Origin: Bacillota bacterium | Lineage (GTDB): Bacteria; Bacillota; Clostridia; Peptostreptococcales; Anaerovoracaceae | Assembly: GCA_028724585.1 (NCBI GenBank) | Contig: JAQYCQ010000019.1 | Coordinates: forward strand, 62,001 to 126,000 | Reading direction: 5' to 3' | DNA: 64,000 nt | Shown here: positions 52,796 to 57,819 of the stretch, piece by piece | How the letters are laid out: each line of letters starts with the position of its first letter | Numbering within the stretch: the first letter of the stretch is position 1 | Translations under genes and position numbers: made by a program | Notes under the pieces: model-generated | Seen by the model: only the letters and a program-made list of their open reading frames with translations | The model's database searches: none | Told to the model about the DNA's origin: nothing

Positions 52796-54337
52796 ATGGA
52801 AATAAGAGATCTGACTGCCCTCGAGCTCGGGCAGAAGATAAAGAGCGGCGAGATAAAGGTCAGGGAGGCTGCTGAGGCTTACCTGGACGCCGTAGAAGAA
52901 AAAGACGAAAAAGTAAACGCGTATATCACTGTTACTAAAGAAGACGCGCTGGCGAGAGCCGATGAGGTTCAGGAGATCCTGGACAAGGGCGGCTTCGAGG
53001 GAAGCAGGCTGGCAGGAGTGCCTGTCGCTGTAAAGGACAATCTCTGCACAGAGGGCGTTCTCACAAGCGCGGCTTCACATATCCTGGACAACTTCGTTCC
53101 CCCTTACAGCGCGACTGCTGTGATGAAGACAAAGGAAGCCGGCGCTGTAATGCTGGGCAAGGCAAATATGGACGAGTTCGCCATGGGCGGCTCGACGGAG
53201 ACTTCCTTCTTCGGAGCCTGCGGCAATCCTTGGGATACTTCAAGGGTTCCGGGCGGTTCTTCAGGCGGAAGCGCCGCGGCTGTAGCGGCCGGTATGGCTC
53301 CTTACGCTCTTGGCTCTGATACAGGCGGTTCCATCAGGCAGCCGGCTGCTTTCACAGGATTGACAGGCATAAAGCCGACCTACGGCAGTGTTTCACGATA
53401 CGGCCTTCTGGCCTACGCTTCGTCACTTGACCAGATAGGACCTATCGCTCACGATGTCAAGGACGCGGCTGCTGTACTCGAGATGATCTCGGGAAAGGAC
53501 GACAGAGACAGCACTTCCATCATCGATAGTCCGTTCGATTTCAGCGCTTCCATCGCTGATCCTGACGATCCTTCAGCGTCTGTCAAAGGCATGAAGATCG
53601 GCCTTCCGTCCAACTGCTTCGGCAAGGGACTCGATCCGGAGATCGACAAGGCTATAAAGGACGCGGCTAAGCTTCTGGAGAGCGAAGGTGCCATAGTGGA
53701 GGAATTCGAGCTTCCTAACCTGGACTACGCGGTTCCGGCTTATTACATCATCGCCTGCGCGGAGGCCTGCTCCAACCTGTCACGTTATGACGGCATCAAG
53801 TACGGCCTGAGGACCAAAAAGGCAGAGGATATCATCGAGACTTACTATAAATCAAGGAGCGAGGGCTTCGGCACAGAGGTCAAACGCAGGATCATGCTCG
53901 GCTCCTTCGTGCTGAGCTCCGGCTACTTCGACGCTTACTACAAGAAAGCCCTGCAGGTAAGGGGACTCATAAAGAGATCCTTCGACGACGCGTTCAAGAA
54001 GTACGATATGATCGTCAGCCCGGTCAGCCCGACTACGGCTTACAAGATCGGCGGTCAGATCAGCGATCCTGTCGCTATGTACATGGCCGATATCTATACG
54101 GTATCTATAAACCTTACAGGCGTTCCTTCTATCTCGCTCCCTTGCGGATTCAGCTCGGAAGGACTTCCTATCGGCATGCAGCTGATAGGAGATTCCTTCT
54201 CGGAGGATAAGCTGATAAAGGTTTCATCGGCTTATCAGGAACTCACAGATCACCATAAGCAGAGACCTGCTGTGTTCGTTAAAGGCGGAGCAGACAGCCT
54301 TCCTGTACTCAAGAAAGAAAGGAGCGTGGAAGAATAA
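52796..54337 (+). CDS. gatA: Asp/Glu-tRNA amidotransferase subunit A
   Basis: 513 aa amidase-signature enzyme. Catalytic Lys in GVPVAVKDNLCTEGV, the Gly/Ser-rich signature SRVPGGSSGGSAAAVAAGMAPYALGSDTGGS (shown by its key parts) with both serines, and a C-terminal GLPIGMQLIG. It releases ammonia from glutamine for GatB. Its stop overlaps the next start by one base, so production with GatB is coupled. Confidence 0.97.
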   Translation: MEIRDLTALELGQKIKSGEIKVREAAEAYLDAVEEKDEKVNAYITVTKEDALARADEVQEILDKGGFEGSRLAGVPVAVKDNLCTEGVLTSAASHILDNFVPPYSATAVMKTKEAGAVMLGKANMDEFAMGGSTETSFFGACGNPWDTSRVPGGSSGGSAAAVAAGMAPYALGSDTGGSIRQPAAFTGLTGIKPTYGSVSRYGLLAYASSLDQIGPIAHDVKDAAAVLEMISGKDDRDSTSIIDSPFDFSASIADPDDPSASVKGMKIGLPSNCFGKGLDPEIDKAIKDAAKLLESEGAIVEEFELPNLDYAVPAYYIIACAEACSNLSRYDGIKYGLRTKKAEDIIETYYKSRSEGFGTEVKRRIMLGSFVLSSGYFDAYYKKALQVRGLIKRSFDDAFKKYDMIVSPVSPTTAYKIGGQISDPVAMYMADIYTVSINLTGVPSISLPCGFSSEGLPIGMQLIGDSFSEDKLIKVSSAYQELTDHHKQRPAVFVKGGADSLPVLKKERSVEE

Positions 54338-57300: not shown

Positions 57301-57819
57301 GCTGACCGCCTCGGCATGATAGATAAAGACAGATTCGAGTTCTGCTACATAGTAGATTTCCCTATGTACGAGATCAACGAAGAGACAGGCAAGCTGGACT
57401 TCACGCATAACCCGTTCTCCATGCCTCAGGGCGAGATGGACGCGCTCATGAACAAGGATCCGCTCGATATCTACGCTTACCAGTACGATATAGTCTGCAA
57501 CGGCTATGAGCTCTCTTCAGGAGCTGTAAGAAACCACAGGCCTGACATCATGGTCAAGGCCTTCGAGATCGCCGGCTACGATGAAGAGGTCGTTAAGAAG
57601 AAGTTCGGAGCTCTCTACCATGCTTTCCAGTACGGAGCGCCTCCTCACGCGGGAATGGCTCCGGGAGTCGACAGGATAGTAATGCTGCTGACAGGCGAGG
57701 AGAATATCCGTGAGGTAATCACATTCCCTCTGAACTCCAACGCGGAAGACCTCATGTTCGGTTCGCCGGGCGAGGTTACAGAGCAGCAGCTCAGAGAAGT
57801 ACATATAAAGATAAGGTAA
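54337..57819 (+). CDS. gatB: GatB fused to aspartyl-tRNA synthetase
   Basis: 1160 aa in one open frame. Residues 1-509 are a complete GatB: GLEVHVELSTKTKIFCGCS and CPVCMGMPG give the four zinc cysteines, and the tail domain ends with MRRLKGKGSPRAVNGLLKEK. Residues about 510-580 are an Ala/Lys/Glu helical linker. Residues about 580-1160 are a bacterial AspRS: anticodon-binding OB fold with WLQTVRDHGGIVFLDLRD, motif 2 FRDEDARLDRSPGEFYQLDFEM, a GAD insertion and motif 3 GMAPGVDRIVML. H615 in RDHGG matches the His of non-discriminating AspRS. Together with GatCA it should charge tRNA-Asn with Asp and amidate it. Confidence 0.95.
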   Translation: MEYEVVMGLEVHVELSTKTKIFCGCSTEFGGEPNSHTCPVCMGMPGSLPVLNKGVVDRAIKTGLAFHCDIQYSNMFDRKNYFYPDLPKDYQISQLYHPICLNGYIEIENPAPGQDLDEYGMIRDKGAYAADGTGNSEIKSTKLTPAPEGVKRIRLHEIHMEEDAGKLVHEAAATMIDYNRCGVPLLEIVSEPDFRSADEVVEYLEKIREMLVYMNVSDCKMEEGSMRADVNLSVRPKGSDKFGTRTEMKNINSLKSIKNAIEFEAKRQMDILNAGGTISQETRRWDEEKSETFVMRSKENAQDYRYFPDPDLVPVKITDLWVKKMQGEMPELPQDKRRRYTEDLGLTAETARTITSEKALADLFDQAYDICGFARDTANTITVDLIGIIKEAGGEPADIDIDPAKFAKIIELVSEEKINRNVGRDLVKELYLHGTDPEQYVKENGLMIENDLSVIGSLIDDVLAEFPQSVADYKSGKKKAFGFMVGQVMRRLKGKGSPRAVNGLLKEKLDGTAYDPEKAALEEKLKKAQKAEEAAQKAAESADKAVSRETYQPQLTAAEKALQRAQDGSDEKAEGEDRIAFQPNRYRTHTCGELRESNIGEHVKVSGWLQTVRDHGGIVFLDLRDFYGVTQIVVNEDMISGISKETVIEVEGDVIRRDEETVNPNIATGLVEVKAEKVTVLGPCKSSLPFEVERSKETREDVRLTHRYLDLRNPAVRDNMIFRSKVIQYLRHKMEDLGFLEVQTPILAASSPEGARDYLVPSRKHKGKFYALPQAPQQFKQLLMASGFDRYFQIAPCFRDEDARLDRSPGEFYQLDFEMAFATQEDVFAVAEKVMYDTFTHFSDLPVSKPPFRRITYRDAMLKYGSDKPDLRNPLIIIDLSDFFAKVDFAPFRGRIVRAIRVPGAIKQSKSWFKSMEKYALSIGMKGLGYISVKDDMTYKGPIDKFMTDEQKVEIAKLAELQPGDVLYFISDEPGMVEKYAGQIRNEVADRLGMIDKDRFEFCYIVDFPMYEINEETGKLDFTHNPFSMPQGEMDALMNKDPLDIYAYQYDIVCNGYELSSGAVRNHRPDIMVKAFEIAGYDEEVVKKKFGALYHAFQYGAPPHAGMAPGVDRIVMLLTGEENIREVITFPLNSNAEDLMFGSPGEVTEQQLREVHIKIR
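55971..55986. other. parS: parS site inside the GatB-AspRS linker
   Basis: TGTTTCACGTGAAACT, 15 of 16 positions of the parS consensus (last base T for A). It encodes residues about 545-550 (AVSRET) of the linker, so the coding constraint there is low. About 3 kb before parB. Confidence 0.8.

What the first reader, a model, noticed from the sequence alone, without database searches (positions are those of the whole stretch)
54337..57819. GatB-AspRS fusion: a covalent transamidosome
Seen: one 1160-codon frame encodes complete GatB, a roughly 70-residue helical linker and a complete AspRS, behind gatC and gatA and an Asn-type T-box. Known: in bacteria without AsnRS, a non-discriminating AspRS makes Asp-tRNA-Asn and GatCAB amidates it; in some species the two bind tRNA together as a transamidosome. 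Inference: this organism has made that complex covalent, so the mischarged tRNA can be handed over within one polypeptide. H615 in the RDHGG motif fits a non-discriminating enzyme. I do not know a described case of this fusion.
Basis: partly seen in the sequence, partly recalled or inferred. Interest (0 to 1): 0.92.

Follow-up and report, generated by a model that had tools for sequence, protein, structure and literature searches.

The report
GatB–AspRS fusion: a covalent transamidosome
In a family of clostridial bacteria one gene encodes, as a single 1160-residue protein, an aspartyl-tRNA synthetase and the amidotransferase subunit GatB; the two would thus stay joined while together they likely turn aspartate into asparagine on its tRNA.

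Summary
In detail: window 54337-57819 (+) is one open frame with complete GatB, a 74-residue linker without any in-frame start codon, and complete bacterial AspRS, behind gatC, gatA and a T-box whose specifier reads AAC (Asn). It is no assembly accident: 120 of 120 listed database relatives and at least 41 of 349 family genomes carry the fusion; both halves form single clades, so it probably arose once. The implied setting needs correcting. The window's genome also has AsnRS, GlnRS and a second, Leu-type AspRS; AsnA and AsnB were not found, and the fusion holds the only GatB found. tRNA-Asn has the U1-A72 pair that GatCAB needs. Best reading: a covalent asparaginyl-transamidosome that makes asparagine on tRNA-Asn, switched on by uncharged tRNA-Asn. 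In 28 of 41 fusion genomes AsnRS was not found, so there it may be the only source of Asn-tRNA; of 14 operons checked, all 6 with a T-box come from genomes that keep AsnRS. One genus has an independent AspRS-GatC fusion. No paper describing the GatB-AspRS fusion was found in the open library searched. Coupled catalysis is inferred, not shown. Verdict: real, undescribed, a new variant of a known machine.

The parts
52225..52457 (+). T-box leader (Rfam RF00230)
   Evidence: 98.2 bits, gathering 93
52319..52321 (+). T-box specifier codon AAC (Asn)
   Evidence: Position in the cmscan alignment. The same position reads AUC before an ileS-like, CUC before a leuA, UGG before a trpX-like and UGG before a trpE-like ORF in this genome's four other T-boxes
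52421..52430 (+). T-box antiterminator sequence GGGTGGTACC
   Evidence: Read in the sequence and aligned
52449..52477 (+). Terminator hairpin followed by a U run; shares GUCCCU with the antiterminator
   Evidence: -21.1 kcal/mol, z -7.03
52499..52786 (+). gatC, 95 aa
   Evidence: Pfam GatC 85.1 bits; TIGR00135 82.6 bits on the longer ORF
52796..54337 (+). gatA, 513 aa (glutaminase subunit)
   Evidence: TIGR00132 604.4 bits; Pfam Amidase 502.2 bits
54337..57819 (+). gatB::aspS2 fusion, 1160 aa
   Evidence: One open frame, both domain sets
54337..55869 (+). GatB part, residues 1-511
55870..56091 (+). Linker, residues 512-585, no in-frame start codon
   Evidence: structure prediction
56092..57816 (+). 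AspRS part, residues 586-1160 (OB fold, class II core, GAD)
56179..56181 (+). Codon of H615 in RDHGG (non-discriminating signature; meaning recalled)
   Evidence: H in 41 of 41 fused AspRS; L in 29 of 31 stand-alone partner AspRS

Best explanation
The gene encodes GatB and a second aspartyl-tRNA synthetase in one chain and, with GatA and GatC from the same operon, would form a covalent asparaginyl-transamidosome that likely puts aspartate on tRNA-Asn and amidates it to asparagine without the two enzymes having to find each other. Shown: the single frame, the operon, the Asn specifier of the T-box, the His at the signature position, the U1-A72 pair of tRNA-Asn, AsnRS and GlnRS present, AsnA, AsnB and a second GatB not found in a 90.2% complete genome. 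Inferred: (1) the fused AspRS is non-discriminating and charges tRNA-Asn with Asp; (2) GatCA(B) amidates it with ammonia from GatA; (3) because AspRS is normally a dimer, each particle would carry two GatCAB units; (4) when asparagine is short, uncharged tRNA-Asn binds the T-box, the terminator is not formed and the operon is switched on; (5) in the window's organism the product is mainly the cell's own asparagine, since AsnRS is there to charge free Asn, whereas in relatives without AsnRS the fusion is the only source of Asn-tRNA.
For: Domains and frame. No start codon in the linker. Fusion in 120 of 120 listed protein clusters, linker 40-128 aa, median 77.5, and in at least 41 of 349 family genomes. 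Fused AspRS (37 of the 41 were in the tree): one clade within the AspRS2 of gatCAB operons (SH-aLRT 100); fused GatB (40 of 41): one clade (99). H at position 615 in 41 of 41 fused AspRS, L in 29 of 31 stand-alone partners of the same genomes. Own genome: AsnRS 605.7 bits, GlnRS 702.1 bits, AsnA no match, AsnB none over cut-off (best 72.9 bits over positions 1-165 of 517), one GatB. tRNA-Asn U1-A72, tRNA-Asp G1-C72, the two tRNA-Gln seen without U1-A72. T-box AAC, with 4 of 4 other T-boxes reading as their downstream gene predicts. In 20 family genomes without the fusion: GatB over cut-off 0 of 20, AsnA over cut-off 19 of 20. The role of U1-A72 and G1-C72 for GatCAB is in passages of PMC9976931 and PMC4206432.
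Against: No activity, expression or proteomic data. The genome is 90.2% complete, so AsnA, AsnB or a second GatB could be missing. The meaning of His/Leu at this position is recalled; no passage read here tests it. One stand-alone partner (G148) also has His, one (G143) Phe, and 4 of 45 AspRS of unfused gatCAB operons have Leu. In the other genome whose tRNAs were read (G241) tRNA-Gln does have U1-A72, so exclusion of Gln from amidation by tRNA sequence is not general. The predicted model has mean pLDDT 71.2 and pTM 0.43, so the placement of the halves is unknown. 8 of 14 checked operons have no T-box match. 15 of 41 fusion genomes have AsnA or AsnB over cut-off, so tRNA-dependent Asn synthesis cannot be the only reason for the fusion.
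Confidence: 0.8

Rival explanations
1. The fusion only keeps GatB and AspRS in equal amounts (or stabilises one of them); the two halves work on the same pathway but independently, and tRNA is released between steps as with separate enzymes.
For: The linker varies from 40 to 128 residues and is poorly conserved, as for a plain tether; the model gives no confident placement of the halves.
Against: An independent AspRS-GatC fusion in the same family joins the same two enzymes at another subunit; equal amounts alone would seem a weak reason when the genes already share an operon (an argument, not a test).
Confidence: 0.3
2. The chain is cut after translation, so cells contain ordinary separate GatB and AspRS.
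For: The linker is rich in A, E and K and mostly low-confidence, so it could be exposed to proteases.
Against: The open frame is kept in 41 genomes of 23 genus codes; no shared cleavage motif was seen by eye in the 17-row alignment, which was not a systematic test.
Confidence: 0.08
3. Fused GatB mainly serves Glu-tRNA-Gln and the AspRS is a passenger.
For: GatCAB in general can amidate Glu-tRNA-Gln; in G242 (94% complete) no GlnRS was found while the fusion has its only GatB; tRNA-Gln of G241 has U1-A72.
Against: GlnRS is over cut-off in 35 of 41 fusion genomes, with partial hits in 4 more; the window genome's two tRNA-Gln genes seen lack U1-A72; the T-box reads Asn.
Confidence: 0.05

Closest known systems
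Asparaginyl-transamidosome (Thermus thermophilus, Pseudomonas aeruginosa, Mycobacterium)
   Same: ND-AspRS plus GatCAB acting on tRNA-Asn; U1-A72 on tRNA-Asn; PDB chains of 4wj3 match both halves and 3kfu matches GatB and, weakly, AspRS
   Different: There the proteins are separate, and for the mycobacterial complex all three components were needed to assemble (passages of PMC8406222). Here AspRS and GatB are one chain.
T-box controlled amidation operon of Clostridium acetobutylicum (Saad et al. 2012, seen only as cited and summarised in PMC4206432; the paper itself was not held)
   Same: T-box control of tRNA-dependent amidation, extra AspRS, GatCAB, AsnRS kept, Asn made on tRNA; that its T-box reads Asn is recalled
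   Different: Separate genes there (recalled); C. acetobutylicum has three AspRS and an additional GatCAB. Here one GatB was found, and it is fused.
AspRS-GatC bifunctional protein (NCBIfam NF009460/PRK12820)
   Same: Covalent link between AspRS and a GatCAB subunit
   Different: GatC, not GatB, and at the other end of AspRS. The window protein scores 432.4 bits against a cut-off of 1379. The relatives G195 and G196 have their own AspRS-GatC ORFs, also below that cut-off.
Two-AspRS systems of Deinococcus and Thermus
   Same: One discriminating and one non-discriminating AspRS, AsnRS and GlnRS present, Asn made on tRNA (PMC4206432 passages)
   Different: Their second AspRS is of archaeal type, without the GAD domain. 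Here it is bacterial type with GAD and fused to GatB.

Membership tests
Asparaginyl-transamidosome | GatA, GatB and GatC encoded together | tested here: met
Asparaginyl-transamidosome | AspRS with non-discriminating signature (His in the RDHGG motif; meaning recalled) | tested here: met
   H in 41 of 41 fused AspRS, L in 29 of 31 stand-alone partners
Asparaginyl-transamidosome | AspRS charges tRNA-Asn with Asp and GatCAB amidates it | not testable with these tools
   needs enzyme assays
Asparaginyl-transamidosome | tRNA-Asn with U1-A72, tRNA-Asp with G1-C72 | tested here: met
   Own genome (1 tRNA-Asn seen) and G241 (2 seen) U1-A72; own tRNA-Asp (2 seen) G1-C72 (16 of 30 tRNA loci scanned)
Asparaginyl-transamidosome | AspRS and GatCAB are separate chains held together through tRNA | tested here: not met
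   One open frame, no start codon in the linker
T-box controlled amidation operon (C. acetobutylicum type) | T-box with Asn specifier in front of the amidation operon | tested here: met
T-box controlled amidation operon (C. acetobutylicum type) | Second AspRS and AsnRS elsewhere in the genome, no working Asn synthetase | tested here: met
   (absence in a genome 90.2% complete)
NCBIfam NF009460 AspRS-GatC bifunctional protein | Score over the curated cut-off of 1379 bits | tested here: not met
   432.4 bits
GatB (TIGR00133) | Score over the curated cut-off of 314.8 bits | tested here: met
   548.9 bits
Bacterial AspRS (TIGR00459) | Score over the curated cut-off of 373.85 bits, with GAD domain | tested here: met
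   625.2 bits; GAD 49.3 bits

The most novel reading that the evidence does not exclude
This is a permanently assembled transamidosome that does not need tRNA to come together: an AspRS dimer carrying two GatCAB units on flexible arms. The covalent link made the indirect route safe enough that the lineage could drop AsnRS (and mostly AsnA) and rely on it alone, and evolution reached the same solution twice in one bacterial family, once through GatB and once through GatC. Where AsnRS is kept, the particle is a standby asparagine factory under an Asn T-box; where AsnRS is lost, the T-box is gone too.
Probability: 0.45. Interest if true: 0.85.

Novelty: new variant of a known kind. Interest (0 to 1): 0.74.

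Why it matters
Whether mischarged Asp-tRNA-Asn is channelled or released bears directly on translation fidelity; known transamidosomes are dynamic complexes, and at least the mycobacterial one needs tRNA to assemble. A natural fusion turns that into a direct test: cut the linker and measure mistranslation of Asn codons. The family also offers a natural experiment, with unfused operons, two independent kinds of fusion, and lineages with and without AsnRS. Where a source names these proteins, the name is mostly aspartate--tRNA ligase or aspartyl-tRNA synthetase, so the GatB half is largely hidden from name-based searches.

Tried and rejected
Rejected: assembly artefact (41 genomes, 120 protein clusters). 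Rejected: organism without AsnRS. Rejected: restart at the linker in the window (no ATG/GTG/TTG); 37 of 41 fusion ORFs do have some such codon in or just after the linker, 8 an ATG with a loose ribosome-site match, so this argument is strong only for the window and the three other ORFs without one. G026 looked like an unfused exception: its gatA is also split and its frames overlap, so I take it as frame errors or decay; it was not mended and is not counted among the 41. G150, whose AspRS ORF is cut by a contig end, is not counted either.

Led nowhere: a tRNA-Asn pattern search found two places that ARAGORN does not call tRNA; replaced by Rfam tRNA in two genomes. The structure model was too weak to place the two halves, so no fold search was made. 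Literature: searches; the five phrase terms (such as GatB-AspRS, AspRS-GatC, covalent transamidosome) gave 0 papers. Only open-licence PubMed Central text was searched, so a description elsewhere is possible.
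Full report
What is there. Window 54337-57819 (+) is a single open frame of 1160 codons. It holds a complete GatB (Pfam 5-322 and 362-509) and a complete bacterial-type AspRS with OB fold, class II core and GAD domain; both halves pass the NCBIfam cut-offs for gatB and aspS. Between the domain models lie 74 residues (512-585) with no in-frame ATG, GTG or TTG, so a separate start for AspRS inside the linker is not possible. Linkers of the family are rich in A, E and K. 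AlphaFold predicts helices at 516-537 and 557-567 and low confidence for 530-580 (mean pLDDT 71.2, pTM 0.43), so 'helical linker' is only partly supported. Upstream are gatC (52499-52786), gatA (52796-54337, overlapping the fusion by one base) and a T-box (52225-52457).

The T-box. Rfam RF00230 matches with 98.2 bits. By the alignment the specifier is AAC at 52319-52321. I checked the position on the four other T-boxes found in the genome: AUC, CUC, UGG and UGG. The next ORFs are best matched by ileS, leuA (the T-box in the window at 7285-7532, minus strand), the tryptophan transporter protein TrpX and trpE, so 4 of 4 fit; leuA is over its NCBIfam cut-off, ileS and trpE are cut by the locus end and below it, TrpX is below it (277.2 of 390 bits), and the T-box before trpE scores 82.5 bits, below gathering. 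A terminator hairpin with a U run (52449-52477, -21.1 kcal/mol, z -7.03) overlaps the antiterminator.

The genome around it. The window's genome (1.77 Mb, 90.2% complete) has AsnRS (605.7 bits), GlnRS (702.1 bits), a second AspRS beside a histidyl-tRNA-synthetase-like ORF and no other GatB. AsnA has no match; the best AsnB match is 72.9 bits over positions 1-165 of 517 only, which by position and ORF length is probably another glutamine amidotransferase such as PurF (not tested). The two other genomes of the same genus that have the fusion, G278 and G279 (92 and 70% complete), agree: AsnRS and GlnRS present, AsnA and AsnB not found. tRNA-Asn has U1-A72 and tRNA-Asp G1-C72; the two tRNA-Gln genes seen read G1-U72 and A1-C72 (ARAGORN was run on 16 of the 30 tRNA loci, so further copies may exist). 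In G241 tRNA-Asn also has U1-A72, and so does its tRNA-Gln. According to PMC9976931 (passages), U1-A72 in tRNA-Asn confers, and G1-C72 in tRNA-Asp helps prevent, amidation. So GatCAB here has its Asn substrate, while Gln has its own synthetase.

How widespread. The protein search listed 120 clusters; all 120 contain both halves, with linkers of 40 to 128 residues, median 77.5. 3011 proteins passed the E-value but only 120 are listed, so the total number of fusions is unknown. Organism names given for some are Anaerovoracaceae, Aminipila sp. and Clostridia; where a name is given it is mostly aspartate--tRNA ligase or aspartyl-tRNA synthetase. Of 349 genomes of the window's family, at least 41 have an ORF holding parts of both domains (some are cut by contig ends; linkers here 42 to 132). 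This is a lower bound, because the match list was truncated.

Origin. In the AspRS tree (106 rows, quick method) 37 of the 41 fused AspRS were included; they form one clade with SH-aLRT 100, together with two contig-edge rows and the split G026, inside the AspRS2 of gatCAB operons and far from the stand-alone AspRS. In the GatB tree 40 of the 41 fused GatB, with G026, form one clade, support 99. One fusion event followed by inheritance of the pair fits both. Unfused neighbours occur with the same order gatC-gatA-gatB-aspS2 (L052, L079) and, more often, as aspS2-gatC-gatA-gatB, also within the family (G330, G340, G344, G345, some cut). In genus code g51, G195 and G196 have AspRS and GatC in one ORF of 695 and 706 aa, GatC over its cut-off (57.1 and 54.1 bits, cut-off 47.1). 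G200 has an ORF of the same length, G175 is interrupted by a stop and G189 is cut by the contig. The AspRS of these five is a separate clade (support 100): an independent fusion of the same two enzymes, scored for GatC in two of the five.

Specificity signature. At the position of H615 all 41 fused AspRS have His; of 31 stand-alone partner AspRS from fusion genomes (31 of 41 genomes fetched), 29 have Leu, one His (G148) and one Phe (G143). AspRS2 of unfused gatCAB operons have His in 41 of 45 readable rows and Leu in 4. That His marks non-discriminating and Leu discriminating bacterial AspRS is recalled knowledge (Pseudomonas and Helicobacter work); I saw only the reference to Chuawong and Hendrickson 2006.

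Which Asn routes go with it. AsnRS: over cut-off in 12 of 41 fusion genomes, a contig-end piece in one more (G033), none in 28; in 20 family genomes without the fusion, 19. GlnRS: 35 of 41 over cut-off, partial in 4, none in 2 (G251, 57% complete; G242, 94%). AsnA: 6 of 41 against 19 of 20, plus one partial. AsnB: 13 of 41. No AsnA or AsnB over cut-off: 26 of 41, of which G141 has two sub-cut-off AsnB pieces. GatB: matched in all 41, over the cut-off in 37 and only as contig-cut pieces in G034, G131, G152 and G153; 0 of 20 over cut-off in the others. The 20 were chosen for completeness of 97-100% while fusion genomes range from 57 to 98%, so the contrast is biased; among the 11 fusion genomes of at least 90% (one, G314, with 9% contamination), AsnRS is in 6, AsnA in 2, AsnB in 5, neither synthetase in 6, GlnRS in 10. 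On the tree of fused chains AsnRS needs two changes (bootstrap range 2-2; 40 rows, G251 left out), AsnA two and AsnB eight. As relatives without the fusion nearly all have AsnRS, two losses after the fusion are the simpler reading, though the count cannot give direction.

T-box and AsnRS. I examined 14 fusion operons upstream of gatC: the window's and 13 others. Six have a T-box, three over gathering (window, G001, G314) and three below it (G278 90.6, G036 85.4, G028 84.1 bits); all six read AAC. All six genomes have AsnRS. Of the eight without a match (G346, G342, G023, G341, G143, G140, and L037 and L082, taken as G156 and G136), seven lack AsnRS and one has it (G023). So a T-box in 6 of 7 operons with AsnRS against 0 of 7 without.

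Mechanism. Most likely the fused AspRS charges tRNA-Asn with Asp and the GatB half, with GatA and GatC, amidates it. In the mycobacterial system no complex of GatCAB with ND-AspRS alone was seen, only with tRNA-Asn (PMC8406222 passages). The fusion would replace that by a covalent arm. In the window's organism, which keeps AsnRS but seems to lack free-Asn synthesis, the logic is that reported for Bdellovibrio and Staphylococcus: Asn is made on tRNA (PMC4206432 and PMC6523644 passages). The T-box then would switch the operon on when tRNA-Asn is uncharged, like the T-box control reported for C. acetobutylicum (Saad et al. 2012, seen only as cited). In relatives without AsnRS the particle would be the only source of Asn-tRNA.

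Novelty. Seven literature searches in the open library showed no description of a GatB-AspRS fusion; the phrase search gave no paper. The kind of machine is known; the covalent GatB form, its spread, the independent GatC form in this family and the link to loss of AsnRS and of the T-box are, as far as I could search, new. Five papers were seen as passages (PMC4206432, PMC8762117, PMC9976931, PMC8406222, PMC6523644), the rest as listings only.

Noticed in passing
window 7285-7532 (-): T-box with specifier CUC (Leu) in front of a 2-isopropylmalate synthase (leuA) gene.
   Followed up: yes
L003:1456-3558 (G000:C38): Lysyl-tRNA synthetase of 700 aa with a C-terminal HD domain (Pfam HD 28.2 bits), another fused synthetase in the same genome.
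   Followed up: partly
L136:833-2917, L137:2673-4790: AspRS-GatC fusion ORFs in genus code g51 of the same family, with AsnRS also present.
   Followed up: partly
window 54337-57819, residues about 113-147: Insertion of roughly 36 residues in the GatB catalytic domain of the window's nearest relatives, absent from more distant fusions in the alignment.
   Followed up: no
G242: 94% complete fusion genome with neither AsnRS nor GlnRS over cut-off and one GatB only: the fused GatB may serve Gln as well, or GlnRS is in a gap.
   Followed up: no
G346:C3:38438-39862: An additional unfused GatB (533.6 bits) in a genome that also has the fusion; G157 has a second, contig-cut GatB too.
   Followed up: no
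L052: Contig labelled Treponema sp. MAG with unfused gatC-gatA-gatB-aspS2, the order from which the fusion could arise; possibly a binning error.
   Followed up: no
L131:3621-6840 (G345): AsnRS gene directly in front of aspS2-gatC-gatA-gatB, both Asn routes side by side.
   Followed up: no
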